Below, in pieces: positions 3,701 to 36,830 of a DNA stretch of 64,000 bases. A program made the translations under genes and the position numbers. The stretch lies in NCBI GenBank assembly GCA_037893245.1, contig JBAIAA010000352.1, forward strand, positions 248,001 through 312,000, given 5' to 3'. The notes under the pieces are model-generated. The model saw nothing but the letters and a program-made list of their open reading frames with translations, made no database searches and was not told the DNA's origin. This stretch comes from Crossaster papposus. Lineage: Eukaryota > Echinodermata > Asteroidea > Velatida > Solasteridae. Position 1 is the first letter of the stretch. Every line of letters begins with the position of its first letter.

Positions 3701-6700
3701 CTGTTCATTCAGCAGACGCTTTCTGTCGTGATATTGCATCTTCTGTTACGCAAATAAAACCACAGCAACCAAAATAACCCAAAATATAAATATGCCCCCA
3801 AAAAATCACCAAGTTGTTGCTTTTATAAGAGGGCGAAGTGTTCAAATATAGTCTATTTATTTCTATCTTGTCTATGAAAATAAAACAAAATGCTTACCAT
3901 GCCCAATGGAATCATCAGTAACCTTAGTCAGCACGCGACCGCTCGCGATGTCGGAGAACGCCCAGTGCTGATCTTCGGAGCAGCTCAGCAGGTAGTCACC
4001 CGTGGCGTGGAGACTGAGGCCGGTGACCGGTGCACTGTGGGCACGGATGACTTGCTGGCAGGATGCGTTGCCGACAAACCAGATACGGATGGTGGTGTCT
4101 GGAGAAGAGCTGAACACGATTTCCTGTGGAGGAGAGGAGGGGGGAGGGGAGTTTTTCAGATAACAATAATCGTGATAGCTGGCCAAAAAACTGACTTCTC
4201 CCGAGTGTTTCAAAAATGTTTACCCTGTGGAGACCTGAAAACAATGGGAGTGAAAAGGTCTCCGCAGGGTATATTTCTATAGATAAATAGGTCTCTACAA
4301 GGTTTTCACAAAATAGATTAATGGATTTTACTCAAAAACTAGAGTTAGTGTTTGGGTTAGGGTTTGAATATAATATAGGGTATATTTAGGATAAACTTCA
4401 ACCCGAGAAATCGACCGTAGCTGAATTAGGAGCATTTTGAAGATAATTTTTGACAGTCCACAAATTGTATACTCGAGATACAAGGATACAAATTTGCGAT
4501 TGTGTGAGTTTGTATCTGCATTCAAATAGTGGAGGTAGAACAATAAAGGACAATAGGGTCCACGATTGACAAAGTCCACGATAAAAAAAAATAGTGTACA
4601 AAACCTACGGGAGGCCTTCCAAAAAGTACAAACAAAAGAGGAACAACAGGAGGTTCACGATGGAAAGTATTTACACACATGGGTGTGTTGGTGACATATG
4701 ACATAGTTCAACTAATAGTTGAAACTTCTAAGAAAAGTAGAATGGGTCAGTGTCGTATCCAAATTCATCACGTCTTCAAAAATCCATCACAATTTATCCT
4801 GTCTAAAGGCCGGTTCATACTTCACGCGAAAGCGATTGCGATACGAATTTGACGTCACAAAGCGTTCGCCCATCTTTAATGAGGGTAACCCATCCAGCAG
4901 AAGCTGATCATTTGGGGCCCTCAGTAGAGGGAAGACAATGAGAAGAAGGTACAGTTTTTAGAGGTGGAACGAAAACCCCACAAGAATATCCTGGGGAAAA
5001 CCCACGGAGTCAGGCAGGGACTGAAAACCCAATCGACATATTGGCCCAGGCGGGGTTCGAACCCGGGTCATAGTGGTGGAAGGCGAGGAAAGAACCGCTA
5101 CGCCAACCCGACTCCCCTAAGTCACAAGCTTTTCATATACATGTAAACTGTGACAAAGGAACTCCCCTTGCTATTGTTCATCCCATGCCACTTGTGATCA
5201 GACTTGACTAGTCATTTTTGTTTTACTTGACTGCTACAGTCATGGAAATGTTGTGCACCATATCCACCTGATAACACCCACCTGCTGCTAAACACACTTA
5301 CCTCAGTCGGGTGATAGATGACATTGGTGACCTTCTTGCTGTGACCTTTCATGACAGCAGTCACCTGCTCCGTGTCCTTGTTGAAAACCACCACCGACTT
5401 GTCGGCACCACCTGAGGATGTGCGAATTACTTTTGTATTAGAGAGCACAAATCAGCTATCAATAATAAACTAGTTCTAATTACATCACTTCAAAAACTTC
5501 AATGCAGGGCACTTCTTAAAGCACTTTTTGTTATGTTTTGAGCCAATAACATTCCTGTACAACTCGTTGTTTTAGGCCAATTTCTGGACTCACCTGTCAG
5601 GACCTTTGATGTGTCTGAGGCCTGGAGATCCATAGACAAAATGCCTGGCACACTGGCACTATGCAGACCCTTGGGGGGAGGATGAAAAAAATAATATTGT
5701 AAATCAGTTTTTAAGTGCTTTTTACTAGTTCGTGTCTCGGTGGAAGTGCATTCGCGGAATTTTAAATGGAACTCAAAATGAATGACGGATAAACACGTCT
5801 ACCCACAGATGCCGGTCTGAACCTGAACCCGTTTCGAATCGAGGTTCGTGAAAAAACAATCCCGTGGCTTTGCCCGGTCAATGTTAAATTAATCCCAGCA
5901 TTAACTGGTTAACGACATACATTTTTTGAGAGCAGGTCGCAGATAAACTTGAATTTTTTTTATCATAGTAGCTGTAAATTTGGTAAAAAAGAAGGCATTA
6001 TTTTTTACATTCGTCTGCAGCAAATACTTTGGTTGCTATAGAGTTTTGCTTGGGCAAGTCTGATGGTCAAACATGAAAAATATCTAAAATGTTCAAATGC
6101 GTTTATCTCAAAAATGGTTTCCCTTTAGCTGAACTAAACCACCAATACTAAAATTAACATCCTTGCAACCAAACAACATAAAACAATAATGTTGGCATCA
6201 ATTTAAAGCGGAACATGTCTTCTTTCCATCTACAGCAAAAAACTAAATTTCACCAAACTGCGACTTTTGGTTTTGAGGGAAGCAGGTCAAATAATGCGCA
6301 AGCAATGTGTCACTCCATAGAAGCTTTCAGAAGAGTTAAAAGTGTTATCTATTGTTTGTGAACGCAGTTTCCATACTTACTGGATGGGAGGACAGGGTTC
6401 TGAATGTCCTGATGTCGTCTGGTGGCATGAGCTCATCAGGAACCTTCTTGCCTCGACGTTTACGCTCTGCGGTCAGCAAGTTGGCCTTCTCTTGAAGCTA
6501 GAGGGAAAAAAGAAGAAGCAGAAAACAAGGAACCTTTAACTTTAACATCCTAGGCGTTAATTTTGGGGGTAATGTACAATATCCTACAAAGTACTACAAA
6601 ACCCTAACCCTCCAGGGTATTTTGGCTAGAAACCCTGCCAGACGCAACAGATTGCATACTTTGTCAGATTGACTTGTGTGCAGAGTCAAGCAAGGTCAAG

Positions 6701-14306: not shown

Positions 14307-14659
14307 TTAAAGGGATTGTATACGTTTGGTAATTACTCAAAAAAGGGTATGGCAATAAAAACTTACTTGGTAAGAAGTACAGCAGCTTTGGATAGTATAA
14401 TGCATTTTTATAAACTTTTCACTTCGAAGTACTGCGGTTATGGAAAAAGATATCACTTTTTATCCCCAAAAATTTGAATCTGAGAAGCGTTACTGCAGTG
14501 ACGTGTATTCCAATGCAGATTATTCTTTCTGCATGGACATAACCGCATAACCGCTAGAAATGAAGTTTTTACAGGTTAGTTTTATGGTATATATCTATAA
14601 CTATATAGGATTGAAACAAACAGTGGGTTCCAATTACCAAACGTATACGATCCCTTTAA
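14307..14659. mobile_element. Family B MITE copy 1
   Basis: TTAAAGGGATTGTATACGTT at the left and ACGTATACGATCCCTTTAA at the right. Interior words CACTTCGAAGTACTGCGGTT and GAGAAGCGTTACTGCAGTGA are shared with copies at 29.5, 31.1 and 55.2 kb. It lies 74 bp past the receptor stop codon. Confidence 0.9.
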
Positions 14660-14732: not shown

Positions 14733-14815
14733 TCAGAATTGGGTTTGCTCTTCCTCAGCAGCATCATCAGCAGCATCATCAGCAGCATCATCAGCAGTCT
14801 CATCAACAGGCATGG
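14733..14815 (-). other. Last coding exon with acidic DDAA-repeat tail
   Basis: Encodes AMPVDETADDAADDAADDAA EEEQTQF and TGA. The phase-1 join to the 7TM exon (GCGACAG|CCATG) gives one continuous frame. The DDAA units come from a short trinucleotide-type expansion (GCTGATGAT), so tail length is probably variable between individuals. Confidence 0.75.
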
Positions 14816-17800
14816 CTGCAGTGAGAAAAAAACAGACACTATTACTACTTAGAACCTTAACTAAATAGACCAGTTTGGTATTCCAACTACACAATTTTTC
14901 TTTCAGGAAATATGCGGCAGATAAGGGGACGTTTGGACGTACGTGGTAACCCAATCTAAATTTGTTTGCATTTTTATGTGCAATTAGAAAAGACGAAGAA
15001 AACATTCATTTGAACAAAAAAGTTTGGATATAAAGTATACATGACACCTCACTGTAGAAATTATTTTTTTGAAAATTGTTACTTTAGAACACGACAATCT
15101 CGTAATCAGCAACCCCGTTTCATCAGCTTATTTATCCCTGAACCGAAGTATTACTGAAACAAAGTCCTAAAAAGCATGTTGAACCAAAATTTGAATCAAG
15201 GACTTATTTTAACACAACAAAAGAGTAACTAGAGCTTATGTGGTTCACGAAGCATGGATATAAGCCCAAATAGCTTTTTAAAAGGTTTGTGTAAACTGAC
15301 TCACACTGACCACTAGATGACATTGGCCAAATTCTGACCCCTGCTGACCATTAGGTGACCATTGACCAATTATGTTTATATCCTGTAGAGAGGCTTTTTT
15401 CAGGGATGTACTGACCACTTTTGAGAAAGACTGTGAAAGAAGCATTTTGTAGTTTTTAAGAAAATGACTACTAGTGACCACTAGGTGACCTTTGACCACA
15501 CATGCTGGTCACTTGCGATATAGGACAGGTCAAAGAAGATCCTGTCCAAATTTGGCTGAAATCGGCCATGAAATTTGGAAGATATTGCATTTTTGGTGAG
15601 CATTTGCCAGAAGAAATAAATAAAGAACTGGAGGAGAAAGTAATGCCGCGAATCAGCGTGCTTCGTTGATATAATAATACATTTGTTAAAGAGAATGCAG
15701 AATTGAAAATTTATTGCATCATAACTTACCTGTCGCATTTTCATACACAGGATGGATTTCCACGTTCACATCATGATCTTCGTCTTTCTGGCCATTATCA
15801 TTTTCATATGTGTCTTCTAACTCCAGAGTCAAAGCTTTTCTGTCACCACCAGTTTCATACAGATTGTGTTTTATCTTCACATCCTTGACTTTCTTGTTAC
15901 CGGTGTCTATATTCTCCTTTTTCTTAGTAAGGGCGACTACGTTCCTCATGAACATCAAGACCAGGATAATTGTGGCATCTGCTGTCAGACCGATGGAGAT
16001 TGCAGGGATGCCCAACTCTGGATCAAATACCGGTAAGTTGAGAACACAGGCCCAGGCAATCAGAATCAAGATGCTGAAGAGACTAGTGACCGAGATGTAC
16101 TTGCCCTCGTGGTTGGCATGAGAAGCATTCATGGCACCAAAGGAGGACAGGAAGGTAACAAGGACCAGGAAGTAGGCATACATCATGAAGATGGTCAGAT
16201 CGATGTTAGTGATGCCGCAATCAAGCAGTGAAACAGTCCCACAGGCATTCAGGGGTACGTTGACACTAGGAGGAATCAGGACCAGCCACTCAACCACCAG
16301 GAAGGCCTCAGGAAGGAGGAAGGCCAGAAACAAGAGTGATTGGGACCAGGAGCCGGCAAAGTTCATATCCACACCTGGTTGTTTACGTGCAAATCGATTT
16401 GCCCGGATGCTCTTGACGATCATGGCAGCGTACACCACGCAGTACACAAAACTGACACCAAAACGACGGATACCACAAATGGCTGGATTGGGTTCAAACA
16501 TGAATGCCACATTAAGAAGGTACATCAGGATAATCCCCAAAAGAAGCCACATGCTGAGACTGAAAGAGGCACTCTGAACAACGTAGCTTTGACGCTGGCA
16601 GAGAAACAAGAAGCCAATTAAAAGTGCAAATACTCCACAGACACCCGACACGGCTAGGACGACGGTTGACCAAATACCATAATCTATCCATCTCCAGACA
16701 TACGCCCGAACTGAAGCAGCTCCATCAGCTAAGACGATAGGACCACAAGAACACCCAGATGGATCTCTTTGAGCTTCCTCAGCAGCAGGGCTGTACAACT
16801 TGATGCCTGCACTATGGAGATTAAGTTGGTTGCTCTGCCATCTGCCAACCTGAAATGAGAACCATTTGTAATGGACCGATCCGGCCTGTCAATCACTACG
16901 CGCGCATTGACCAATAAGATTCCGAGTTTTGTTCAGGTAAATAGCAACGGTTGCTACAGGCGTGGTCCGCCATTAGCTCGGTCAAACTATATCACATGTG
17001 CTTAGAAAAGTGTACACAAACAAATAGCTTCGGTACGAAAAGGCACCGTGTTTGTCAATCAAAATACGGCTATGTGGAGTTTTTAAAAATGTCAAAAATA
17101 TGCATGAAATGGTCAGGAAATATGTAAATAACACGCTGGTACTCGTATCACGGCATCATTTTGTTCCCGTTAAATACCAAAACAAATCTCGAAAATGAGA
17201 ATTACCGTTGAACTCATGTGACGTGAACGGCGGGAATGTCAAGAAGACAAGGTCAAGGACAGTATAGTCTAAGGTAGGATAGGGGGCCTATGTAGAGTTA
17301 ATAGTAATGCTCTACATGTGTATAAGTCTATATTCCAGTACGGGTATACTTACCAAGCAACCATACAGATACAAATACACCGTCCGTAACTTAAAATTCC
17401 ATGGTTTTTCTTCTCTCCTGATCGGCTCATGGCATGCATGCTTCATTCCCCCAACTTGAACTTATTCATCCTTCATGTACTGTACATACCCTTCCTTAAA
17501 ATAATGGTCATCGTCCGCTAGCTTGCTGATAGTCCCCGCCTAAAGTTTAAATAAATATTTCGTTGTACGTGATACGCCTAGCCGTACACGTACATCTGTA
17601 TACGTAAAGTACGTATGTACACGTTCACATGAGTGCAACTTGACCGAGGTAATGGCGTCGCGATGCCGTTGCTAAGGTGGGCGGGGCTTATGGTCAAATC
17701 CGGATCGGTTCATTGTTTTGAAATTCTGAAGAATCAACAAAAGTAAAACAGCACAGGTTTTTCAGATAACTCAAATAATCAGGTGTCCCCAATAGGTTAA

Positions 17801-20800
17801 CTGGCCTGATAATGTCAATTAGTACAGGTAATGATTAGACGTTTTACTTTCTATAGTCCCCCTCTGGCCTTGGCAGCATGTTTCTTGTGTTTTGTAAATA
17901 AAATGATCCTAACTTTTATCACTTACAATTAGAAACTGCCCATTCTGTTCATCGTACTGGTAGTTTTTTATGTTGTAAGTGGCAGGTGCACTGTGTTCAT
18001 CAAATGAGAAGGGGTTTCCACCTGCTCCATCCTCCACTGTCACCTGAAGTATCGCATCCACCTTTTCTTGTGGAGATGAATCAAGAAAACTCTCACACAG
18101 TCCATCATTGGAGGAACCACACTTTGAGTCATGGAGCAGGTTAGCACCGTAGACGGCAACGTACAAAGCATTGACAAGTGGAGAGATTTCTCCAGACAAC
18201 TCCTGGAGAGATTCTTGCAGCTGATTGTCAAACTGGCAGTCGGATGAAACTGGACAAATTTGCTGGAGATAATCTCGGAGGTAAGGGTTTCTTGCACTAG
18301 CAGCTTCAAGGTGGTCCGAGTCTGAGAAGTACTCTTGTATCTCAGGAAGGTCTGGTCTGTGTTTGGTCACCAGCAGCATTCCCTTGGCTGAGTTTTCTAG
18401 ACCCGAAACAAGAGTTAGAGAGTCCCAAGTGTCGGTTCCCACCCACACAAACCTCTTGCTCAGTTTGAAGTGATCAGCATACAAGAGGTTCCTGGCATCT
18501 TTTTCACTGACAAAGGCAACAATGACATTCAGAAAGTCGTCGTTGCTAAAATCATTGATGACATCCTGGAAGTCTGTGGTATCATTAATGTAGTGTTGAG
18601 CTCCAAGGCAAATGCCAGCTACCTGGGCAGCCATCTGGAATTCTTGATAGTTGGCTATGCCATAAGGAGTCAAAGAGTGTACGACTCCTACATACCTCCA
18701 GTCAAATTCCTCTAGGATCCCAATGATGGCAGAAACCTCTTCCTTGTATGGAGTAGATGTGGCCAAAACTAGGGAATTGTCATCGAGATTGGGATTCAAG
18801 GCACTGTAGCTGATCTGTAAAAGATCAATCATTACACCATGTCACAGTGAAGTCACTTGTTTTCTTCTACACTTTACCCAAAACCTCCCACCTTTTCATT
18901 TGAAAAACATTAAAGGCCGGTATGGCTATGGACACTGCATTGCTTGAAATAATTGTGTCTGGTAATAAGCTGCTGTTTTAAGCCTAGGTCACACTGTCAC
19001 GATTTTTGCGATCACGGCCTCTGATTAGTTGAGCAGTTTTAATTGGGGTGAATCGAGAAAAAAGTGCCCCAATTGCACGCTCCTAAGCATACTTACGATC
19101 CTTCTACGATGACACTACGAATATTGACCACAACTGTACAGTTTTGATGCCAATTCATCATGACCTGCTACGGTATCCTTCGGTGTACTAAAGTTCTAGT
19201 ACGATAGCGTCAAGACTCCTCTACGATTATAGCAGCTCACAGATCATTGTGCTAAGATTGACGACATTTTATTGTCACGCTTCACTACATCGTAGAACAT
19301 TATAAAACAGTCATGGGTATTCGGAGTGATTCGTGATAAAATTAAACCACGATTGGCCATTGAAGGCCCACGGAAGACCAGTAATGCCTACCAGATGGCG
19401 TTGTGCACGATTGAGTTACAATTGCACTGCAACTGCCCCACGGTTTAAACAAATCATATAGCACCGCCACGACAGTTTTTTAACAGTTAAAAACTGTCGG
19501 GGGAGTTTGCCGACCAGTTAAGATTCATCACGACTCATCAAGATTCACCAAGATGCCGCTACGAGTATGTCAAGGATTTTTTGAATCGTGGGCTATCGTT
19601 TGGTAAAATCGCGAGTGTGACCTAGACTAAATAGCCAAATAATACTTACCATTGGCAGTTCACTTTGACCAGTCACAGTGTTTGCAATCTCCTCAGCGAC
19701 GTCAGGATTAGCCGGACCTAGAACAGCAAATGGTTCTCCTGTACTCTCAAGACTGACATAATCACCCAACAGCCCAACAAGCTTCCGAGTCGCAATTGCA
19801 GGATTCCCACAAGAATCTATCACAGTCACACCAAGCGTTACCCCGGGTAGAACTGACGGGTCTGCATTCACCTTGTCAAGAGCGTACAGGAGTGATTCTA
19901 GAGCCAGTGATTCTTCCGGCTTGCGGTCTCCGCAGGTTAACCCCTCTCCAGACTCGCTGAGCTGCATGACCACGGGAAAGTCCAAGTCCCCTGGGATGCG
20001 GAAGTAGTCTTGGTGGGAGGTGGTGTTGGTGTCGGGCGATGGCGGTGGGTTACATTCCAAGCATAAACCGGTACATTCCGATGAGAACATTGGATCAATG
20101 ATGTCATCAGAGAGGTTGGAGAGGCCATCCACATCGTCCCAAGAACCAATCTGTTGACAGGATAATGTGAAAATCAGTGTTACACCTTACAGCTTTTCGT
20201 GCAGATTGGTAATGCGCAGATCAAGCACCTTCTCTTATCAACATTGCTACCAAGTCATCCGAAACTCTAACTCATGAAAACCGACCTCTTGATACTGGTA
20301 CATGTTGTTCATCTCTTTGAGCTGGTATATTGAGTAGAGAGCTGGCCCGTCTCCGTTTTCATCAAAGCTGATCATCTTCTTTGAGTCAACCGGACTGATA
20401 AAAGCAACGTCTTTAAGGTGGTCAAACCAATCCTGGCTGTCGACCTCATAGAGAGCATCGCAGGGACCTCCATTGGGACAAGTGTCACCGACGAGGTTGG
20501 AGAGGGCCACTGCATAAGCATGAATTACATTGATGATGTTTTCTGTATCCACGCTGTTCACGTCGCTGCTAGACAGCGTCTCAGAACCTGAAACAAAGAG
20601 AAAACAAATCTGAAATGGGAACACCTTGTCTAAAGTAAGCAATGTGAATAAATTGTGCAAGCACTATGTATGTACCATAAAGGGATATTGTGCATATGTG
20701 ACCAGCTTCCACAAAACAAGACAATAGTTGTTTTTTTGAAAAGTGAGATATTGTTATTTTCATTTATTACACATCTTCAGCTTTGAATTTGGTACCAAAA

Positions 20801-23800
20801 CCACCTTTATACCATACAAACTTATATTTTTATGAGAATTTTGAGACTGCGTATACACCCGATTCTGAATAATGAGTTATAAATGTCTTTAAAAGTTAAA
20901 TGATTTTTGTACTTTCTCATCAATAAAGTTGATTTTGTTTAACTGAGGGTTGAAGTATACATATTAAAAAATAAAAAAAAATAAAAAATGTCCGCCATAT
21001 TATGGACCCCATTTCAACTTTGACGAGCTGTACGACTTATGTCGGGTTTCAAAGGGGCGAGTCATATATCATGAATTACAGCATTTTGAAATCACTGCTA
21101 TACATCCCTGCAAGAACTGTTGGTATACAAACTTTAACACATAATGTACGTTGACAGGATGGCCTTTTTCGTTTACAATCAGTATGAGAATCAATTTTAC
21201 CCGTGCAATTTTTGCGATATGTTGTGTCACCACCAGAAAGGTCACACTTGAATTTCTTCATCCAGTATTCATTGAAGTAGGGATTGGTGCCATCTTGAGT
21301 CTCAGGAGTCAACTGGAGAAAGTAGTCTTCAAACTTGGGGAAGACTGACGTCTTGAAAAACACCGTCAGGGCTCCTAGGTGCATCAAGAAAAAATTGGTT
21401 GCTTAGCTTTTTAAAGAGGGAATACAGTTAAAAAGCCGCAGATTAATGGACAGACGGATAGCAGATAGAGAAACGGTAAGAGTCGGGTCAAATGCTTACC
21501 AATAGCTTGGTCTTCAAAGCCTGGGATGTATTCAGTCCTGGTACCCCAGGTATCAGATGCAAGAAACTGAAATTGACTTGCATCAATATTCTTGTCGACC
21601 ATTGCCTGAAATAGGGCTTGGGCGTGGTCGTCAATCAGGAAAAGAACCAATGTACTTGCACTGGGTTTTGTTAATATGTCATTCAGCAGACCGACATAAT
21701 TGGTGGTTGAGTCTACGACAAAGGAGTTGGCAATGCAGATTCCTTTCTGTATAGAGAATAGGAAAAACATTCGACAGTAGTACGTGGATCGTAAACCTGC
21801 ATATTCCCTCGAGTTGATATTTTGTTATCAAGAATAGCTACCCCAGATGCAGCCTTCGGCATCAAGTGATACCTCAGTCCTTTTTATTATGCCTTCCCCA
21901 AAAGACACCTTATTCACTTTGTGTAGCTGTCATTTTATGAATTATTATGGTTTATACCAACCTTAGTCACCACCTCTTTAAGAGCCTGGATACCACCTTC
22001 TCCATAAGCACCCTTGGTGTGGAGAGTCTGTATATATGTCAAGCCCAACCTTGCTAACAGATCTGCCATAGCTGCTGCTTGCTTGGTGTCTGGGGGTACT
22101 GTGCGAAGAAAGTTGCCAAACGAACTTTTGTCACTCAGTGTTGGACTTGTAGCACTGTTGGCCATCATTGGCACATCTAGAACTTGAAGGACTTTGCTCT
22201 CTTCGATGGCCTTGCCACTGCTGCCAGAATGTAGCACACCCATAAGGTAGGAATCGTCTTCTTGGTTGGGAAACCCTCCATCAAAATCCCATCCCTGGAT
22301 GGATCGAAATGCTTCTATCTTAGCAGCAGTCACGTCCCCGCAGATGTCATTCAGGGTCAGCGACAACCGCACCCCCGAGAGGAAGCTAGTGTTGCAGTTT
22401 ATTTCACGAACTGCAAAGCGGGCTGCCTCGGCTTGAGTGAACTTGTTCTCTCGTAAGGCATCACATTGACTTCCACGAAGGTCAAAGAGACCCTCAATGA
22501 CAAACTGGGTGCGATGATCAGCACCATAACACAAAGGGTCGCTGCAGAATCCGACCCAGGAAGTGGATGGTGGTATACCAGCGATGGGACCATCTGGGCC
22601 ATAGAATGTCAGCAGGTCTGTATTCAGATTCAAACCTTCTTCTGATGTCCACTCTCCAACCTGAGATAAGAAACAATTCACTCACTTTTAAAATGAAGGT
22701 GACTGAATCTGATTTCCCTAATTCCAAGTAATTAATGGTAAAAATCTAAAATCTTGTTCCTAAGGAAACTGAATCTACCTTAGCTAACCTTCTTTTTTTC
22801 TTTTTTTAATCTGAAGAGTGGCATACATATGGAAAACTTTATGCCCGATCATAATATTTTTTGTTGGCCTTTTCACCACGCAAACCTTCATAACGCACCT
22901 GATCATAAAGGGTAAACATTTTTTGGGGGTTAAATAAACAACACCTAGGCAGGTTCGGAGACAGAGCTGTTTGCATCTTGGCAAATATAAGGAAAATTGG
23001 CTGGCGAATCCCCATTTCTAAACGTCTAGTCCTGATGGTGTAACTGTCCAAAGAACATATCTAGAAGGTTTGTAAGACTATACCTCATTATATTGGTAGG
23101 TATCGTTCGTCTCAGTTAATTGGTAAAAAGAATACCAAGCAGGGCCGTCTCCATTCTCATCAAATTTCACCCTTCTTTTCAAACCAACGTGACTGACAAA
23201 ATCAACTTCTTTGAGGTGTTCCAGCCATTCCTTTCTCGATACGTCAAAGACGGCATCGCAGACCCTTCCATCTGGGCAGGTTTCGTTAATCAAATTAGAC
23301 AGGGCGATTGCGTACACATAAACAGAATTTATGAAGTATTCCGTTGCTGCGCTAACATCACTTCTAACGTCACTGCTTGACAGCATCTCAGAACCTGATG
23401 GACAATTAAATATTTTCTATTTAATCTACTGTAAATGGAATTAGAAACAATTTGCATTGGGGGAATTTACCTCTCCCCAATGCAAATTCCATCCAGTAAA
23501 AAGTTTGTATAAGGTACGCACTGTTATATTAGACTCAAATAATGACCCCATAGAAAAAACAACCGGGATTCCAGGCGGGATCCCGCCGGGAAAAACTTGC
23601 GCGATTTTTTTGCGGGATTATCTGGGATCCCGGTTGAACCTGGATTTTTTTAACCGGGATCCAGGTAAATTTTTAGCGGATCCTGGTTGGATTCAACCGG
23701 GATCCCGGTTAATTCAACCGGGATCCCGGTTAATTCAACCGGGATCACGGTTGGATTTAACCGGGATTTCGGTTAATTGCAGTTAATTTATCCCAGCACC

Positions 23801-26800
23801 GCCAACAAATTCAATTCAATTTAATTTAATAACATAATTATCAGATTTGGTTGATCGGGCCAAACCAACCCAAAACATGAAAAAAAAAAAAAAATCAGAA
23901 AAAAAAAAATCAATCCGAATCGACGAATACAGAACCAAATACACAAAAACACAAAAACCTGAATGTCTGGCTTGGGCAAACCACATAATATTTTCTAACA
24001 GTTTCTATCAGTTTTTTGTTGGTTATTTTGAGTTTTTCACAAGATGGCTATAAAACCGACATGACCAGACCAGAACGTAAGCCTCGACCCAACCGAAGTG
24101 ACAAAATGCGTCTAAGAGAAGGTAAAGTTGACGTGCCAGAGCAGTTACTTCTTTAGTCTTAAGACACTTTAAAAATTAAACTATATATCACTGCACTGTT
24201 TGTTTTTCCTTTTGTAAAAAGTATCATTTAATTATATCTTCCATTGCAAGTAAAAGTAATTCTTATCTTTCTTGAATACTTCTACACGATTCTATACCTG
24301 TACAGTTGCGGCTAAACAGTGGCAATTCTCCAGGAAGATTGCATTCAAATTTCAGCATCCAGTATTCCTTGAAGTAGGGATTGAAGGCAGTATCAGGAGT
24401 CAGCCCGAGGTAGTATTCCTCATATTCTGGAACTCTTGCAGATTTGAAGCCTACCGTCAGGACTCCTGTAATGAGAAGTAACAACTAAACAAAAATCGTA
24501 TGTGGTGATGACAAACTCCCTGATTTTATCGACACGACTCTGCCTTACTGGTTTCGCGGCGAAAAGGTTTCTTTACGTGTCGCTTACTTTGCCACCCGTT
24601 TCATGCCGTGCGGGCAAGTCGATGCTTGGCAGGCATTTGTGTGCTACATAAATGGTGGCAGCTGTGCCACCAGTTGCTCGCTTTGCATACACGCACAACA
24701 AATTCAGCCGCCTAGAGTATAACTTTGCTTGAGAATTTTGAGTGTACAGCCCATGGTGATACTCGAGGCACTTGAATGATTTACAAGCAATAGGGCATGA
24801 ACAATAGTAAATAAATGCCACTTTCACCGTTCATATGACGACTTGATGAGATTGTGATCAACCTCGATCGCTCACCTCAAATACATTTCCAGCATAACTG
24901 TACCTTTGGCTGGCTCTTCCAAGCCGGAGATGCGATTCAAAGTGGGTTCCCAAGTATTGGAACCAACGAACTGAAACTGTCCTGCCCTGACATTCATGGA
25001 GACCAACTGCTGAAAAAGTGCTCTAGTTTCCCGAATGCCTAAGAAAACAATAATCGTCTTGGCCTTAGGCTTAGCCAAGAGGTCAAGGACAAGTTGGTCA
25101 TAATCTGTTTCTTGATCCACTCTGAAGGAATTGGCAATGCAGATGCCTCCCTACGGGTATAAAAGAAATGAAATGCGGACCCAAGATTAACATTTCCTTT
25201 CAAGTTAACATCTGTCTGTAGTTACGTAAACATTAAACTTATCTCCTAAACAGGTTAACAATGTATGGTAATCCCTTGGATATTAGCCTGTTTTTTTTAA
25301 TCCTCTGCCTTTGGCCTTACCTCATCCGCTAACTCTTTCAAAGCCTGGATAGCACCATCCCCATAAGTATTCTTCGTGTTGATTGTCTGAACATAAATCA
25401 AGTCCAGACTGGCCAAAAGATCTATGATGGCTGCAACTTGCCCAGTATCTGAAGGGTTGGTGCGCAGAAAGTTGCCAAATTTATCTTTGTCACTTAGCAA
25501 CGGAGTTGAAGCTGTGTTGTCGATGACTGGCACATCAGCTATCTGTAGATTCGTGGACGTAACAATGGCTGATCCACTGTAGGCATTATGCAGTGCACCC
25601 AGGAGGTAGGAATCATCTTGTCTTGGAAACCCTCCATCAAAGTTCCACCTCTGGATCAGATCCAGAGAGTCCTTACTTAATGCCTCTAGGTCCCCACAAA
25701 ACTCGTGATTCACCAAGGAAAGACGGACATCTGGCAGCAAACTAGGATCCTGATTGATTTGATGAACTGCGTAGTAAACTGGTTCCAAATGAGAGTACAG
25801 AATAGGACTAAAGATTGCACATTCAATTTTTACAAAGTATAGCGCCTCTATAACAAAGTCGGTGAGTTCTTGGCTGCTTCTTGAGTTCTTGACTGAGATG
25901 GGGGGATCAACAGGGGTGTCGCCTTGGCCATAGAATTCCACCTGATCCTTGTTGAGAGTCAGACGCTGAGCTGTTGTCCACTCACCAACCTTAGTAAAGC
26001 AAATCAGAAAATTATCTCAAAAACATTTAATAAAAAAGCATCAAACGGAAAAGCTCATCCAACATGTAAACACCTGGATTTTTGTTTTTTTCCCACCCAT
26101 AAAAGATCTTTAACTTAATGCTTTAATATTTCTTGGAAAAGCTTATGGCAACATTATAATGTTCGTTTTTTATATAGCGCTTTAGACTCCCACAATGTGG
26201 GTGTATCAAAGCGCTTTACAACTATTATCCCTGTTCACCAGGAACGAGACCATTTCTGCAGCAGCTCAAGATCAGCGCATGTGGTCTCTACCTTCACAGG
26301 TACCCATTTATACTCCTGGGTGGAGAGAGGCAATTGTAGCAAAGTGTCTTGCCCAAGACACAAGCACCATGTTCCCTGCCAGGGTTTGAACCCACGTACC
26401 ATCATACAGGAGTCAAACACGGTAACCACTGGACCACAGTGCCCTAACATTAAATTGCCCTGTATGTACCTTTTGGAGGGAGTATGTATTTGGTGTGCCA
26501 GCATTCTTGAACTGTAGAACTTCGTAAACTTCATTTGCCGGGTCACCGTTTTCATTGAATGATATGGCGCGACCTCCGATTCCTGTGAAGTTTACCTGTC
26601 TAATGAAGTCAATGAATTCAGATCCTGGTAAAAGAAAAAATATTATATTAATTATTTTTACAATTTTGTTTGAGAAGGCTTTGTAAAGATCTCATTTTAG
26701 TCAAATGGATTTTAAAGTACTAACCAGTTCGCGCCGGAGGACGCCGGACACGCAAAGTTTTCCCCAGATTCAAAACGGATGACGCATAAACACGTCACGA

Positions 26801-29800
26801 GCAAGGCATGGAAATGACTGTCAGCAGCGAGCAAGGCATGGAAATGCCTGGGTGTGCTTTCCGGTACCATCTGCCTGCACCCGCTTCAGCTCAAGTTTCG
26901 TTAAAAATATTCCCATGCCTCGGCTTGGTGATGTTAAAATAATCCCGGCGCGAAATGTTTAAAAGAATTTAAATACAAGTCGCAAAACACATCGGTAACA
27001 ATTCAGATCATCTAATTTCAAGTCCAGTAATTCCAACAAGTGATCCACGGTACATATTCCATTCAAGTTCAGCACTATGGTTTACAGGCTGTGGATTTTA
27101 ACCACTGAAATCCACCATTACCTTGGATATCGGCCAATGCCGCACACATCCCCTGCTGGCCTCCACACTTCTCCCGATGAGCCAAGGAGAAGGCAGACAT
27201 GTAAGCGTGGATCGCATTGATGATTTGTTGAGCAGGAGGGTAGTTAAAGTCAGTGTCCGGGTACCACTGTGCAAACCAGTTCTTTGCATTATTTAAATCA
27301 TCATACGGCGATACTGCGACGAGACCTCGAGCGGCCCTGGCGTTGCCAGGAATCGCTGTAAAGTCAAGGACTAGCGGTGTATCAGCAGAGAGCCACGTGA
27401 TGGCGTTGGCCGCACCTTGCATGCGTTCTACCGCCAAGAACAACTCGAGGAGGTTTCCAGCTTGGGCCCAGAGTATCACAACTAAAGGGAAAACAACATT
27501 CGAGAAGCTTTAAGCTTGTGCACGCATGCTTCGGAAACCTTGAAATTGTTCTTATTTCGTGGGCCTGCTCCCGATTTCACTAATCGTTGCGACGCGTCGC
27601 AAGTCGAGTTATGAAGAGAAACGCGTCGCATCGCGCGATGCGGTGTACGATCAATTTCTGTAAAGTGTTACAATGCGTTCAATGCGTTGCAAATACCGTG
27701 GCAACGACAAGTAACACGTGTATTTCGGTCGTCGTAAAATAAGATGCGTCTTTTAAACGTACTGTAGGATACACCATTGGTAATTGCTTGAATTATCATT
27801 AATGGGTAGATTTGGGGGTTGTATTTTATAGTAAATATCGTTTAACTGACCTGTCCGAAGTTTTACAATCATGGATGCCGAGAAAATCTGAAAAACAGCG
27901 TTTGTTTTCAACCGGTGTTGGGCAGTTTTTCCTATGTTATCTTTGTTTTTTCGCGATTTGTTTACAAGGTTGATATTAACCGAGGTTGATATCAACCGAG
28001 GTTGATACCAAACAAGCTTGAAATCAAACGAGCTTAAAAAAGGAAAAACAAACATATACCAGTGATATTTTGTTGGATCAGTTGATTCACTATAGCGTCG
28101 TAAGCACTATCCCTTGTCTCTCTAGCACCCACTGCAATAGGCTCACTCCAACAGATCCCAGCCTCTTTGAAGTTGTCTTTCACAGCCTTTAGACCACTCA
28201 ATCCATAGCTGTCATCACTGTGGACTATTGCTGAGTAGGTCCAGTTGTAACTCTTCATAATGTCAACCAATACCTGTTCAATTGGAAAATGAATCAGGTT
28301 ATATTGACAACTGCCAATCAAGATACGATGGCTTTGATGGTGTAGTAATGGCACAGGGTTATACAACAATTGTTTTGATTGGAAATTTTGATAATTTAAC
28401 AATGAAATTGACTGGAGCGGAGTTTGAACCAGCGATCTCGGGGTTGCCCTTCTGGTGCTCCACCAACTGAGCTTTCCTGCCCTATGTTGGGGTTCCCCAA
28501 TTAAACAGTGTCTTTGTTTGGAAGCAGGGTGCCAGTCTGAAGCCACGAAGTATGCATCTCTAAGACACATCTATGAAAAAGACTTTTTCTTATTTTCTTA
28601 AATAATAATAATAATAGCAGCTTTTTATAGCGCTTTCAAGATCAAAGCGCTTTATATTATTATTATCCCTAATCATTGGGCCAAACATAACAAATGGTGT
28701 ATCCACGGTAACCCGACCGACCTGGATTTTTGGCAGCCTAATTGCCAACCTCAAACTTGTTATTGTCGATTTGCGAGTTGATAACATTACAATATGGTAC
28801 AGTTTTGTACATGAACACTATAGTTTCAATTATTTGCCATGAACATAATCATTTTCTACACTTAAAACTTGACTGAAACGAAAAAAAAAAAAAAAAATTC
28901 CTACCTTCCTAACTGGATTTTTTTTTAAGCCGTTACCGTAAACACACTATTTGTTTTACCTTGGCAGCAGCACTGTCAGGGGGTACAGTCCGGAAGAAGT
29001 TAGGATATTTCTCTGCATCACTCAGGGAATCGGATGTTGCACCATAAGAAATTAACGGCATGTCGAGAGGTTGCACAAGAGTTGACAAGGGCTCGCTCCA
29101 GGAACTGTAACCGAATCCAACGATACCTAAAACAAGCGGTGGTTCAACCAGCAACGAAACAGATTTGAGTACAGTGGTAAACATGATCATTCTGGATAGA
29201 CAAAATGTAAAAAAGTACAGCCTGTCACGAGCCAATTATGTGGCTCATCAGGCCAGTGATTAAAGGTAGGATACACCATTTGCAGATATCAAAAATATTT
29301 ATTACAAAATTATTAAGAAATATCCTAGTCATTTGAAAGTAAATAATGATTCTAGGCATCCAGCAAAATGATTGCGCTAGATATCCTGTAATTATTCCGA
29401 AAAATAAAATTTTATAACCAACAATTCGCGATCGGCGGATGGCGATCGCTAAAATAACATAAGAATAACTACTCGACGCTGGTTAAAAACAAACAATCCT
29501 ATATAGTCATAGACATATACCATAAAACTAACCGGTAAAAAATTTATTTCAAAAGGTGGTAGTGATTTAAAGATATTGCCGAAAATCTGGAGCGGTTATG
29601 TCTACGCAGGAAGAATAATCTGCATTAGAATACAAGTCTGAGAAACGTCACTGCAGTAACGCTTCTCAGATTCAAATTTTTTGGGATAAAAAGTCGAATA
29701 TTTGTCCATAACCGCAGTACTTCGAAGTGAAAAGTTTCTAAAAATGCACTATACTATCCAAAGCTGCTATACTTCTTACCAAGTTTTTATTGCCATTAAG

Positions 29801-32474
29801 TTTTGGAGTAATTACCAAACGGATACGATCCATTTAAAAGTGTCTAATTAACATGCAAGTTAAAATCTACAAAGTTGCTCTTTCTTTTATTTTGTACTGT
29901 TGAAAATGGGACGATCTTGCATAATGCTGGAAACCATAAGCCAAGGCAAATAAAATGCTCACTGAAGCTAAAACGAAACTCAATCAATATTGAACATTGA
30001 CTATTTGAACTTACCCAAATGAAGTGTTTTGTTTGTACACACTGTTCCACTTGCAAAGATATCATTGTTCCGTTCACTGGCAAAGCGAACTGTACTGTAT
30101 TCAGCCACTTGAAATGTGCCACACGTGTCATAGATTTCTAAGCCTGAAAAAAAGTTTTAAATGAATGAAACTTTAATGAGTTTAATAAGAAGATGATTTG
30201 ACCTCGTTACATAAAACAGACAACTATGAGACAAATGTTTTGCTTGTAGTTATAATAAGTGACCATAGGTGGACTGGCCATCGGGAGGTTCGAGACGAAT
30301 CCTGAAGTAGGCTGGTGCGGCTTTGAAAATTGTTGTTTTTCTTTTTGATAATAGTAAATGTATGCGCTGTGCGGTCCACGGCCGAGCATGTGCTGGGTCG
30401 GTGCTCCCTTTGTGTCTCTTTGCACAATTGGTCGGCAGATTTTTTGTTTCCAAAAGACGTCCGATTTAGTTCTACGCTATGAAACTTTGGACTTGTGTGG
30501 CCGGTATATGGGCCGGTGCGAACAAACTTCCCAGGCCGAACTTCCCAAACTTCCCTGTATGTGACCCAACTCTAGAAAATGAGTCACAAGGACAGGTGTC
30601 AGTGTATGTGATACACCATTCCAAAATAAAGAGCATAAATGTGACCCACCCTGCAAAAATTAGTCTGATGTGTTAAAAATAATGTTTTTAGTTTTACAGA
30701 AAGAGCAGGAAATAAGCTTTCATTTGACATATGGCACAACTCTGTAGTGTAATGCATTTGTCTTTTACGATTATTTGAAATTTGCTTTTTCTCAGTTATA
30801 TTAAAAATGTCTTTAAACAGAAATGAAGATTTATAATTTTAGTGCTTCATTAGATGCTATGGTTAGTTGATGACAAAAACCTTGATTAAATCTACTTTAG
30901 GGATCAAAACAACCTTTTCAAACGATCAGTTCTGAAAATAATAGGTGTCAGAGAAACCAAAATTCCTTAAAACCAACAAATAATTTGTTGAAAGAAAAAT
31001 CACCTCTGAGACAATAAGCAGTTCTTTACGTGAACATGTATTATGCGACATCAGACTCATTTTTGCAGACCGGGTCACAAATGATATGCTTTCAAATGCA
31101 CGAGAACAACTCAAAACTCAAAACTAGCCCTTAAAGGGATCGTATATATGTTTGGTAATTACTCCCAAAAATAATGGCCATAAAAAACTTACTTGGTAAG
31201 AAGTAGAGCAGCTTTGGATAGTATAATGCATTTTTAGAAACTTTTCACTTCGAAGTACTGCGGTTATGGAAAAAGATCACTTTTTATCCCCAAATATTTG
31301 AATCTGAGAAGCGTTACTGCAGTGACGTTTCTCAGATTGTGTATTCCAATGTAGATTATTCTTCCTGCGTGGACAAAACTGCTCCAGAATTTCGGCAATA
31401 TCTCAAAATCGCTACCACCTTTTGAAATGATTTTTTTACAGGTTAGTTTTATGGTATATATCTATAACTTTATAGGATTGAAACAAACAGTGGGTTCCAA
31501 TTACCAAACGTATACTATCCCTTTACGACTCATTTCGCAGGGTTGGGACACATATACCATTCAGTCGTGCATTTGTATCGTTTGAAGCAGTAAATTCTTA
31601 AAATATAAAAAAAGGAGTTCGACAACTAGCCCGACTAAATTATTCCTTCTAGCATGCCGTTAGTTTGAAGTGTAACTAGAAGTGTATAGCAAAATGTCAC
31701 ACTTTGTGTCCTATACCTTCATAGAATGACCCATATGTGACCCGCTCCAGGAAAAGGTGACATAAGTCGCGCTATGCATTTATGAGTAATGGTCTGTTAA
31801 AGTTAATAGGGTAACTTTTAGTTAATTTATTGTTGTCAAAATGTTTTAAAATCTAAAGTTTCAGATTTAATTTTTAAAAAGCTGGAATTTGATAAATAAA
31901 GTGAAACGAAACATTTTAAGAGTGCAGGGTTCCAATGTATTGTCTTAGTTTTTGTTGTGTTTCAAAGCCTGTTTTATCAGTTGTGTATTTTGAATTCCAT
32001 GGAACCATTAATATGCAAACGTCAAATCACCGTAACGGAAGGGGCTACGAAGCTGTACTATGTACCAAATGAAAGCTCATATCCTGGACTTTTCAATCAT
32101 GTACATAACTCCATTTTTTGTTTTTGCGACTTATGTCACCTTTTCCTGGAGCGGGTCACATATTCTCTCTTTAAACACAACTCACCAACACTCAGTCCAG
32201 GCAATTGGATGGAGTCCGGCCAGCGGTCAGTAGCTGCAATAGCAGCTTGCATAGACAGTGACCCATAACTGGTCTCGGCATTGAAGTCGCACAGAGTCGC
32301 ATCCTGGCCGGCCTGATGTAAAGTCGTCATAAGGCCAAGGGTCAGATCTGCGCCAGGTTTGGTGACGATGGGTGCGAACCCCTGCATGACTGGGCATTGC
32401 TGGGACCAGATTGGCATCACCGTTGCCATGGATACAAGGAGGATGGTGAGGAGATGGTGAGGTGCCATCCTCAT
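14733..32474 (-). CDS. Giant class C GPCR with four tandem Venus-flytrap ligand-binding modules
   Basis: Cell-surface receptor of the metabotropic glutamate/GABA-B-like class; ligand unknown. Exons 5' to 3': 32474-32186, 30143-30015, 29126-28960, 28273-28060, 27481-27122, 26624-26470, 25989-25321, 25150-24904, 24465-24298, 23394-23084, 22660-21962, 21746-21500, 21374-21201, 20587-20286, 20150-19650, 18814-17927, 16849-15730, 14815-14733. They sum to 6,723 nt (2,240 aa plus TGA). All 17 junctions are GT-AG and in frame, so this reads as one transcript. Layout: signal peptide (MAPHHLLTILLVSMATVMPI), VFT1 to residue 438, VFT2 439-903, VFT3 904-1377, VFT4 1378-1840, seven helices 1841-2180 or so, acidic tail. 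Family members normally have one VFT. I see no nine-cysteine linker domain before the helices, as in GABA-B types. Start: first ATG (32474); a second with better context follows six bases on. Closest named relative cannot be decided by eye. Confidence 0.9.
15730..16849 (-). other. Seven-transmembrane exon of the class C receptor
   Basis: One 1,120-nt exon encodes the linker (VGRWQSNQLNLHSAG, with a C-S-C pair) and all seven helices. TM1 begins WSTVVLAVSGVCGVFALL, TM2 SLSMWLLLGIILMYLL, TM3 FGVSFVYCVVYAAMIVK followed by SIRANRFAR, TM4 SQSLLFLAFLLPEAFLVVEW, TM5 IFMMYAYFLVLVTFLSSF, TM6 SLFSILILIAWACVLNLP, TM7 AISIGLTADATIILVLMFM. A cysteine just before TM3 (AICGIRR) and two in loop 2 (ACGTVSLLDCG) fit the class C disulfide. 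The PK-x-Y/L motif typical at the end of TM7 in glutamate and GABA-B receptors is absent here. Confidence 0.9.
17927..20150 (-). other. Receptor module VFT4 (membrane-proximal flytrap domain)
   Basis: Two exons of 501 and 888 nt, residues 1378-1840. It opens IGSWDDVDGLSNL and contains VNADPSVLPGVTLGVTVIDSCG, FAVLGPANPDVAEEIAN, ISYSALNPNLDDNS, DWRYVGVVHSLTPYGIANY and a long lobe-2 exon ending YQYDEQNGQFLI. It keeps the ISYSA segment, unlike VFT2 and VFT3, and has fewer introns, so it is an older or separately evolved module. It joins the helical domain in phase 0 at VGRW. Confidence 0.85.
18984..19628. mobile_element. Intronic MITE with TIR CTAGGTCACACT
   Basis: Left CTAGGTCACACTGTCACGAT, right ATCGCGAGTGTGACCTAG. 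The interior is rich in CGAT/ATCG words. It ends only 22 bp from the donor of receptor exon 15 (19650), so it nearly fills that intron. Confidence 0.8.
20286..22660 (-). other. Receptor module VFT3
   Basis: Four exons of 699, 247, 174 and 302 nt, residues 904-1377, opening VGEWTSEEGLNLNTDLL. Shared landmarks with VFT2 are FLSGVRLSLTLNDICGDV, NSATSPTLSDKSSFGNFLRT, KGICIANSFVVDSTTNY, KNCTGSETLSSSDVNS and FDENGDGPALYSIYQL. The second exon is 247 nt in both modules and the intron phases are the same (0,1,1,0). Extra cysteines near the start (FCSDPLCYG) are not present in VFT2. Confidence 0.85.
20694..21067. mobile_element. Family F element, degraded
   Basis: Left TGTGACCAGCTTCCACAAAA and right CGACTTATGTCGGGTTTCAA AGGGGCGAGTCA resemble the better-kept family F termini at 31736-32160. 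Receptor intron. Confidence 0.5.
23084..25989 (-). other. Receptor module VFT2
   Basis: Four exons of 669, 247, 168 and 311 nt, residues 439-903. It opens VGEWTTAQRLTL and contains INQDPSLLPDVRLSLVNHEFCGDL, TASTPLLSDKDKFGNFLRTNPSD, GGICIANSFRVDQETDY and NCTGSEMLSSSDVRS. The segment equivalent to ISY is VIDNTAST, so the classical amino-acid contact is altered. The cassette starts and ends in phase 0. Its exon plan matches VFT3 almost exactly, indicating that the two arose by tandem duplication. Confidence 0.85.
23685..23775. repeat. Minisatellite, unit about 21 bp (AACCGGGATCCCGGTTAATTC)
   Basis: Self-complementary AACCGGGATCCCGGTT units repeat about four times, preceded from 23560 by looser GGGATCC words. 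Each unit can form a small hairpin. Receptor intron between exons 9 and 10. Confidence 0.85.
26160..26447 (-). mobile_element. tRNA-derived SINE-like repeat in a receptor intron
   Basis: On the minus strand it begins GGCACTGTGGTCCAGTGGTT (A-box region) and has CGTGGGTTCAAACCC (B box). The body ends in AGCGCTTT words that also occur at 28620-28660. It ends next to exon 6 (26470). Confidence 0.75.
26720..26962. mobile_element. Family C MITE copy 3
   Basis: TAACCAGTTCGCGCCGGAGG on the left and CCGGCGCGAAATGTTTAA on the right. It has an internal partial duplication of the AGCAAGGCATGGAAATG segment. It lies between receptor exons 5 and 6. Confidence 0.85.
27763..27963. mobile_element. Family A MITE, one half only
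   Basis: TAGGATACACCATTGGTAAT followed by the CCGAGAAAATCTGAAAAACA block of family A. The other terminal repeat is missing and GTTGATATCAACC-type repeats follow. Receptor intron. Confidence 0.75.
28393..28500 (-). mobile_element. tRNA-like SINE head
   Basis: On the minus strand GGGCAGGAAAGCTCAGTTGG, GGAGCACCAGAAGGG and GCTGGTTCAAACTCCGC give A and B boxes in tRNA spacing. The cloverleaf is imperfect, and similar heads occur at 39.6 and 44.9 kb, so it is a SINE remnant and not a tRNA gene. Confidence 0.65.
29260..29837. mobile_element. Chimeric family A / family B element between TTAA sites
   Basis: It begins as family A (TTAAAGGTAGGATACACCAT...GACGCTGGTTAAAAACAAAC) and switches near 29495 to the reverse complement of family B (AATCCTATATAG...ACCAAACGGATACGATCCATTTAA). 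The junction falls in AAACAA, which both families share. TTAA flanks the outer ends. Confidence 0.75.
30640..31079. mobile_element. Family F MITE (TIR TGTGACCC)
   Basis: Left TGTGACCCACCCTGCAAAAA TTAGTCTGATGT; the right end reads the same in reverse complement (GACATCAGACTCATTTTTGC AGACCGGGTCACA). It is within receptor intron 1. Confidence 0.85.
31131..31527. mobile_element. Family B MITE copy 3
   Basis: TTAAAGGGATCGTATATATG left, ACGTATACTATCCCTTTA right. Same interior as the copies at 14.3 and 55.2 kb. Sits 52 bp from a family F element in receptor intron 1. Confidence 0.9.
31736..32160. mobile_element. Family F MITE with near-perfect 35-bp TIRs and TA flanks
   Basis: TGTGACCCGCTCCAGGAAAA GGTGACATAAGTCGC on the left is matched in reverse complement on the right. 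TA is found on both sides (31734-31735, 32161-32162), as in Tc1/mariner-type insertions. It starts 24 bp inside intron 1 from the donor of receptor exon 1. Confidence 0.9.
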
Positions 32475-36527: not shown

Positions 36528-36598
36528 CCTCTAGCTGACAAAGAAAGTTTTAGTTGCAATAAGGATATCTGCAAGAGCAAACAAAGCCGGTTACTTTT

Positions 36599-36830
36599 AA
36601 ATGAAAGCTGGATGTTTTGTTCTTTTGTTCGGAAAGAAGGTTGTCATCCATTAAATGAGGACACCTCACCATCCTCCTTGTATCCATGGCAACGGTGATG
36701 CCAATCTGGTCACAGCAATGCCCAGTCATGCAGGGGTTCGCACCCATTGTCACCAAACCTGGCGCAGATCTGACCCTTCGCCTCATGGTGAATTTACATC
36801 AGGCCGGCCAGGATGCGACTTCAATGCACA
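36599..36830 (+). pseudogene. Inverted truncated copy of the receptor's first exon and 5' UTR
   Basis: From AAATGAAAGCTGGAT through the reading MATVMPIWSQQCPVMQGF and GADLTL this segment matches the 5' UTR and exon 1 of the class C receptor (32186-32520), but on the opposite strand and 4 kb away. Relative to the gene, an 11-bp deletion between CACCATC repeats and a 3-bp loss put the original start codon out of frame. A 10-bp deletion between two GCGACT repeats then frameshifts after QAGQDAT. Homology fades near 36830, before the exon's splice donor. I found no matching downstream receptor exons on this strand. It is most likely a non-functional duplicate fragment. Confidence 0.8.

What the first reader, a model, noticed from the sequence alone, without database searches (positions are those of the whole stretch)
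14733..32474. A class C GPCR with four tandem Venus-flytrap ligand domains
Class C receptors normally have one extracellular flytrap domain per chain and dimerise. Here 18 exons join in frame at all 17 junctions to give a signal peptide, four complete flytrap modules (438, 465, 474 and 463 residues) and a single seven-helix domain, 2,240 residues in total. One chain could bind several ligands, or could mimic a receptor dimer within one polypeptide. I am not aware of a characterised receptor with this layout. Gene callers would readily break it into several receptors or soluble binding proteins.
Basis: partly seen in the sequence, partly recalled or inferred. Interest (0 to 1): 0.9.

Follow-up and report, generated by a model that had tools for sequence, protein, structure and literature searches.

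The report
Sea-star receptor with stacked ligand traps
A sea-star gene encodes a single cell-surface receptor with four chained ligand-trap domains in front of one signalling domain, and relatives with three to five traps exist in other sea stars and a feather star, so an array of sensors on one receptor seems to be an old, undescribed echinoderm invention.

Summary
Eighteen minus-strand exons (32474..14733) splice by GT-AG into one 2,240-residue protein with four ANF_receptor (PF01094) domains, one 7tm_3 (PF00003) domain and no NCD3G domain. It is not a chance fusion: proteins of Patiria miniata (79% identical) and Acanthaster planci have four modules, Asterias amurensis has five, and a second Patiria gene has three; NCBI names these four 'uncharacterized protein'. 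A feather star (Antedon) protein has parts of at least three modules, and its 7TM groups with the sea-star ones (support 100), apart from the mGluR, CaSR-like and T1R sequences tested. The architecture is [VFT-N][VFT-mid]n[VFT-C]-7TM with n = 1, 2 or 3. The middle module is a four-exon, phase 0-0 block that duplicates. Middle modules mostly keep the residues that hold an alpha-amino acid but lack R78 and K409, which select glutamate; the last module has lost much of the pocket. I propose a modular amino-acid sensor whose last trap couples the array to the 7TM, inferred from sequence. A built-in dimer is less likely, because three and five modules occur. No such GPCR appeared in ten literature searches. 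Transcripts, ligands and structure are untested.

The parts
32186..32474 (-). Exon 1: start codon, signal peptide (by eye), start of flytrap module 1
   Evidence: similar N terminus in P0001 and P0002
30015..30143 (-). Exon 2 (module 1)
28960..29126 (-). Exon 3 (module 1)
28060..28273 (-). Exon 4 (module 1)
27122..27481 (-). Exon 5 (module 1)
26470..26624 (-). Exon 6 (end of module 1, phase 0 end)
25321..25989 (-). Exon 7: module 2, first exon of the four-exon phase 0-0 block
   Evidence: module tree
24904..25150 (-). Exon 8 (module 2)
24298..24465 (-). Exon 9 (module 2)
23084..23394 (-). Exon 10 (end of module 2)
21962..22660 (-). Exon 11: module 3, first exon of the second copy of the block
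   Evidence: DNA similarity to exon 7 (69% over 327 bases)
21500..21746 (-). Exon 12 (module 3; 247 bases, as exon 8)
21201..21374 (-). Exon 13 (module 3)
20286..20587 (-). Exon 14 (end of module 3)
   Evidence: DNA similarity to exon 10 (67% over 319 bases)
19650..20150 (-). Exon 15: CTGLCLECN linker and first part of module 4
17927..18814 (-). Exon 16: rest of module 4 (membrane-proximal flytrap)
15730..16849 (-). Exon 17: short CSC linker, seven-helix class C domain (residues 1899-2141), most of the cytoplasmic tail
14733..14815 (-). Exon 18: last 27 residues, ending TQF (T-x-[FL] in 7 of 7 family members), stop codon

Best explanation
[quoted passage not shown] Shown by sequence: the architecture, its conservation, and the duplication of the middle module. 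Inferred: the middle traps (and perhaps the N-terminal one) bind amino-acid-like ligands other than glutamate. Closure of any of them is passed along cysteine-containing linkers to the last trap, which has a degraded pocket and acts as the coupler to the 7TM, as the non-binding GB2 subunit does for GB1 (recalled) but within one chain. Changing the number of middle traps, by gain or loss of a phase-neutral four-exon block, would change avidity, sensitivity or ligand range. A role in chemosensing or nutrient sensing is a guess.
For: One chain: 17 of 17 GT-AG in-frame junctions; four PF01094 and one PF00003; end-to-end relatives; no second 7TM in the window. Old family: Antedon P0007 has three ANF stretches (one partial) and a 7TM, with 41% 7TM identity to the window against 16-25% for the 11 other class C sequences of the tree, support 100. 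Modular evolution: in the tree, N-terminal and last modules are each one group while full middle modules number 1, 2 or 3; exons 7-10 and 11-14 have matching sizes and phases (669/247/168/311 and 699/247/174/302, phase 0 at both ends). Division of labour (mGluR1 numbers): of 11 sea-star middle modules, 8 keep all of S165, T or S188, D208, Y236 and D318, and 3 have one change each. In 6 last modules D208 is Y or F in 6, T188 is L or V in 5 and S165 is P in 5. R78 is absent in 22 of 22 sea-star modules (one has K there) and K409 in 24 of 24 including the crinoid. Loss of R78 and K409 with a kept backbone site is how PMC6307864 (passages read) describes class IV mGluRs, predicted to bind another amino acid. 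Signalling end: the TM3 and ECL2 cysteines and the TM3 lysine and TM6 glutamate columns shared with mGluR1 are kept in 7 of 7 (their roles are recalled). The tail ends T-x-[FL] in 7 of 7 family members and in 0 of the 4 other class C proteins held.
Against: No transcript, ligand or structure was seen; the relatives are database entries without experimental support seen here, and P0005 and P0007 lack their N-terminal part. The pocket is not intact in every middle module (window m2 D318N, Acanthaster m2 D318E, Asterias m2 S165N), and only 2 of 5 N-terminal modules keep all five residues. Asterias keeps T188 and Acanthaster P0005 keeps S165 in the last module, and Y236 (6 of 6) and D318 (5 of 6) remain there, so its pocket is not uniformly dead. 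In the crinoid, module A has R78 and changes S165 to N, and the last module keeps S165 and Y236. An ordinary single-trap relative (P0008) also lacks K409 in this alignment, so that loss is not special to the array; the column lies in a gap-rich part. The usual NCD3G coupler is absent; the window, Patiria and Acanthaster proteins lack the TM7 FxPK motif that Asterias and Antedon keep. Deep nodes of the module tree are weak (57-73), so how the three module groups relate to one another is open.
Confidence: 0.5

Rival explanations
1. Adjacent flytraps within one chain pair through their LB1 lobes, so that one polypeptide mimics a class C dimer.
For: Class C receptors work as dimers (established, recalled); four modules could form two pairs. 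Middle modules are hydrophobic at positions 120 and 177 of mGluR1, two of the LB1 contact positions as I recall them, and first modules at 174 and 178.
Against: Relatives have three and five modules. Position 116 is polar, charged or glycine in all 13 modules listed, and 177 is P or Q in the first and last modules. The column of the inter-subunit cysteine (140 in mGluR1) has no cysteine in 24 of 24 modules, but the ordinary relative P0008 has none either, so this says little.
Confidence: 0.18
2. The extra flytraps are mainly spacers, adhesion or scavenging modules; only the last flytrap regulates the 7TM.
For: Module 1 lacks a lobe-2 segment; pocket residues vary between species in modules 1 and 2; the last module is the most conserved one (85% to Patiria against 83, 75 and 71% for modules 3, 1 and 2).
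Against: Middle modules mostly keep the amino-acid backbone site while the last module has lost part of it in all six sea-star proteins, the reverse of what this predicts.
Confidence: 0.25
3. Gene-model artefact: three soluble binding-protein genes followed by an ordinary class C receptor.
For: The relatives are computed predictions as far as seen; no cDNA was available here, and I ran no signal-peptide search between modules.
Against: Modules 2-4 start in phase 0 inside a continuous frame; inter-module introns are 480, 423 and 135 bases; the mid-to-last linker CTGLC(L/A)ECN is in 6 of 6 sea-star proteins, though not in Antedon; order is the same in three species.
Confidence: 0.04

Closest known systems
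Metabotropic glutamate receptors (mGlu1-8) and invertebrate class IV mGluRs (PMC6307864, passages read)
   Same: Each module's best solved-structure match is an mGluR flytrap (mGlu4, 1, 5 and 8); best matches of the module-4-to-7TM stretch are mGluRs. Middle modules resemble class IV in lacking R78 and K409 while keeping the amino-acid backbone site.
   Different: Three to five flytraps per chain instead of one; no NCD3G domain; 7TM only 16-25% identical to the canonical receptors compared, several from the same genome, and outside their group in the tree.
GABAB receptor (GB1/GB2)
   Same: No cysteine-rich domain between flytrap and 7TM (for GABAB: PMC12716839, passages read); a division between binding and coupling flytraps is proposed here by analogy (recalled).
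   Different: GABAB splits the roles between two chains; here they are in one. No GABAB entry among the best 60 solved-structure hits listed for each of five queries.
Bacterial tandem-flytrap sensor kinases BvgS and EvgS (PMC4352136, PMC5573083; search listing with start of abstract only)
   Same: Flytrap domains in series in front of one signalling unit.
   Different: Bacterial histidine kinases with two flytraps (recalled for the number); no relation by descent claimed.
Venus kinase receptors (PMC2680970, search listing with start of abstract)
   Same: Invertebrate receptors with a flytrap like that of class C receptors.
   Different: One flytrap and a tyrosine kinase instead of several flytraps and a 7TM.

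Membership tests
Class C GPCR | 7tm_3 domain (PF00003) above the curated cut-off | tested here: met
   113.3 bits against a cut-off of 33.5
Class C GPCR | Extracellular Venus flytrap (PF01094) N-terminal to the 7TM | tested here: met
   Four stretches, all closest to mGluR flytraps of known structure
Class C GPCR | Function as an obligate dimer | not testable with these tools
   Needs biochemistry; see rival 1
mGluR/CaSR/T1R group | NCD3G cysteine-rich domain between flytrap and 7TM | tested here: not met
   No PF07562 at E 0.001 in the window protein or in P0001-P0005 and P0007; only a C-x-C linker
mGluR (glutamate-binding) | Glutamate side-chain residues R78 and K409 | tested here: not met
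   R78 absent in 22 of 22 sea-star modules (present in Antedon module A), K409 in 24 of 24 modules
mGluR/CaSR/T1R group | 7TM falls inside the group | tested here: not met
   Separate clade with the crinoid protein, support 100, in an unrooted tree of 18 sequences; no GABAB or GPR158 sequences were in it
GABAB receptor | 7TM related to GABAB | not tested
   No GABAB sequence was placed in the tree; none appeared among the listed structure hits

The most novel reading that the evidence does not exclude
Echinoderms evolved, before crinoids and sea stars split, a separate branch of class C GPCR that works as a tunable sensor array. Interchangeable middle flytraps bind amino-acid-like ligands, and a pocket-degraded last flytrap transduces to one 7TM within the same chain, with array length set by exon-block duplication.
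Probability: 0.4. Interest if true: 0.85.

Novelty: new variant of a known kind. Interest (0 to 1): 0.74.

Why it matters
Class C receptors are understood as one ligand trap per chain working in dimers (recalled), and a recent survey sees functional constraint on the architecture of metazoan members (PMC12716839, passages read). A conserved family with three to five traps per chain breaks that rule. It offers a natural system for asking how many traps must close to switch on one 7TM, whether traps can be wired in series, and how a receptor evolves ligand range by copying whole domains.

Tried and rejected
Separate tandem genes: rejected on frame, intron length, single 7TM and relatives. A paralogue next to the gene, as Patiria and Acanthaster seem to have: none at E 0.001 in 90 kb of flanks (C352:208001-248000 and 312001-362000) by tblastn, and none among the matches listed for the assembly. 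They returned proteins of three sea-star species, one crinoid, and ordinary class C proteins (P0006, P0008-P0010), and no sea urchin, sea cucumber, brittle star or hemichordate member among named hits (P0008 has no name). The search needs shared exact words, so this is not proof of absence; the third search missed the crinoid protein. Structure prediction of modules 3-4-7TM was not possible. A bacterial-type promoter scan has no bearing here. Literature: ten searches showed no multi-flytrap GPCR, but some lists were cut (20 of 32; 15 of 257; 20 of 49, mostly noise from the letters ANF; 10 of 208). Passages only were read in PMC6267866, PMC6307864, PMC12716839, PMC4302439, PMC5442662 and PMC9759900. 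P0006, P0009 and P0010 were left out of the module tree and counts; P0006 looks like two joined complete receptors (two 7TMs, two NCD3G), a different layout.
Full report
What is there. The minus strand of 14733-32474 carries 18 exons. Rebuilt in a script, they give a 6,723-base coding sequence with GT-AG at all 17 introns, consistent phases and one terminal stop: 2,240 residues. Pfam finds four ANF_receptor stretches and one 7tm_3 domain and no NCD3G. Exons 1-6 make module 1, exons 7-10 module 2, exons 11-14 module 3, exons 15-16 module 4; exon 17 holds the 7TM and most of the tail, exon 18 the last 27 residues. Module 1 has a gap of about 40 columns in lobe 2 against the other modules, and the N-terminal modules of the family are the shortest (398-404 residues against 416-428).

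It is a conserved gene. A search limited by length to large proteins returned six, among them Patiria miniata LOC119730772 (2,205 aa), Acanthaster planci LOC110986355 (2,207 aa) and an Asterias amurensis protein (2,647 aa), plus a second Patiria gene (LOC119730773, 1,785 aa) and a second Acanthaster model (1,418 aa, cut at its start). Pfam counts four, four, five, three and three flytrap stretches in these, each with one 7TM; in the last, one of the three is partial. Global alignments run through the junctions. In the window's own assembly (1.02 Gb, unnamed) 29 protein matches are listed: 14 are this gene's exons and 15 are 24-34% identical places elsewhere (21 of 121 candidates scored). Sequence similarity says the window is from a sea star close to Patiria; no record names it.

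Age. The C-terminal part found Antedon mediterranea P0007 (1,408 aa, named 'metabotropic glutamate receptor 3-like'), a feather star. It has the end of one flytrap, two full ones and a 7TM, and no NCD3G; its start is missing, so it has at least three traps. In an unrooted 7TM tree of 18 sequences it joins the six sea-star proteins with support 100, at 41% identity to the window, whereas the 11 others are at 16-25%: six 7TMs of the window genome (four named as mGluR or CaSR-like), mGluR1, P0008, T1R3 and the two goby domains. The simplest reading is that the family, probably already with several traps, predates the crinoid-asteroid split (the position of crinoids is recalled). That tree lacks GABAB and GPR158 members.

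How the array grows. In a tree of 24 modules plus two references, the N-terminal modules form one group (support 100), the last modules another (100 for sea stars, 97 with the last Antedon module), and middle modules a third (100). The middle group has one member in Patiria LOC119730773, two each in the window, Patiria LOC119730772 and Acanthaster LOC110986355, one full one in the cut Acanthaster model, and three in Asterias, two of which are sister copies. How the three groups relate is unresolved (support 57-73). Modules 2 and 3 of the window are 52% identical; the other pairs are 20-27%. Their exon blocks match in number, size and phase and both begin and end in phase 0, so a whole block can be gained or lost without shifting the frame.

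What the traps may bind. On an alignment numbered by mGluR1, 8 of 11 sea-star middle modules keep all five residues that hold the amino-acid backbone (S165, T or S188, D208, Y236, D318), and the other three have one change each. Of 5 N-terminal modules 2 keep all five. In the 6 last modules D208 is lost in all, T188 in 5 and S165 in 5, while Y236 stays in 6 and D318 in 5. R78 is absent in 22 of 22 sea-star modules (K in one; present in Antedon module A), K409 in 24 of 24, and also in the ordinary relative P0008. PMC6307864 (passages read) reports the loss of R78 and K409 in class IV mGluRs and predicts a non-glutamate amino acid. The roles of the other residues are recalled.

The signalling end. 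The mid-to-last linker CTGLC(L/A)ECN is in 6 of 6 sea-star proteins and not in Antedon; a C-x-C motif precedes TM1. In all seven family members the TM3 and ECL2 cysteines, the TM3 lysine and the TM6 glutamate columns shared with mGluR1 are kept. The TM7 FxPK motif is in Asterias and Antedon but not in the window, Patiria or Acanthaster proteins. The tail ends T-x-F or T-x-L in 7 of 7, a class I PDZ-type ending (recalled), against 0 of 4 other class C proteins held; this also supports exon 18, whose junction is otherwise the least conserved.

Mechanism and doubts. The best-supported proposal is a series of amino-acid traps read out by a last, pocket-degraded trap that couples to the 7TM. Copy numbers of three and five speak against a simple dimer in one chain; LB1 contact positions are only partly lost, and the missing position-140 cysteine is also missing in P0008, so these say little. 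Nothing here shows expression, binding or structure; AlphaFold was unavailable.

What is known. Ten literature searches showed no GPCR with more than one flytrap; the nearest in layout are bacterial kinases BvgS and EvgS (listing and start of abstracts). A recent survey describes metazoan receptors of this class as having ANF with NCD3G, ANF alone, or Cache with EGF (PMC12716839, passages read). No paper held mentions the three gene identifiers. Most subscription papers and all bioRxiv preprints are outside the library.

Noticed in passing
window 36598-36820 (+): Inverted, frame-broken copy of exon 1 (85% identical DNA over 242 columns, 94% protein identity over 52 residues) about 4 kb upstream of the gene: a duplicated exon fragment.
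   Followed up: partly
window 2782-8106 (-): Exons of a likely PRPF19 orthologue (pieces matching WD40_Prp19, and Prp19 PF08606 above its cut-off), the neighbouring gene on the same strand.
   Followed up: partly
window 43916-44745: Repetitive stretch open in several frames on both strands ([18 protein letters not shown] and PFSRH-type), seen among the ORFs; probably not coding.
   Followed up: no
introns at 26718-26962, 27764-27957, 29254-29837, 31124-31525, and 14500-14658 past the gene: Dispersed repeats shared with many other places of the window (70-94% identical), likely mobile-element derived.
   Followed up: partly
cytoplasmic tail, end of exon 17 (about 15730-15750): A Y-x-N motif (VYENA and similar) sits at the same place near the tail end in 6 of 7 family members (P0004 has VFANA there and a Y-x-N elsewhere); Y-x-N is a recalled Grb2 SH2-type motif.
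   Followed up: no
   Followed up: partly
Acanthaster, PMC9759900 (passages): A gene called 'metabotropic glutamate receptor 8' is male-biased in sensory tentacles; P0005 bears the name mGluR8-like, but I could not check whether they are the same gene.
   Followed up: partly
P0006 (goby, Mugilogobius chulae): A 1,543-residue protein with two flytraps, two NCD3G and two 7TM domains: two receptors in one predicted chain, perhaps a merged gene model.
   Followed up: no
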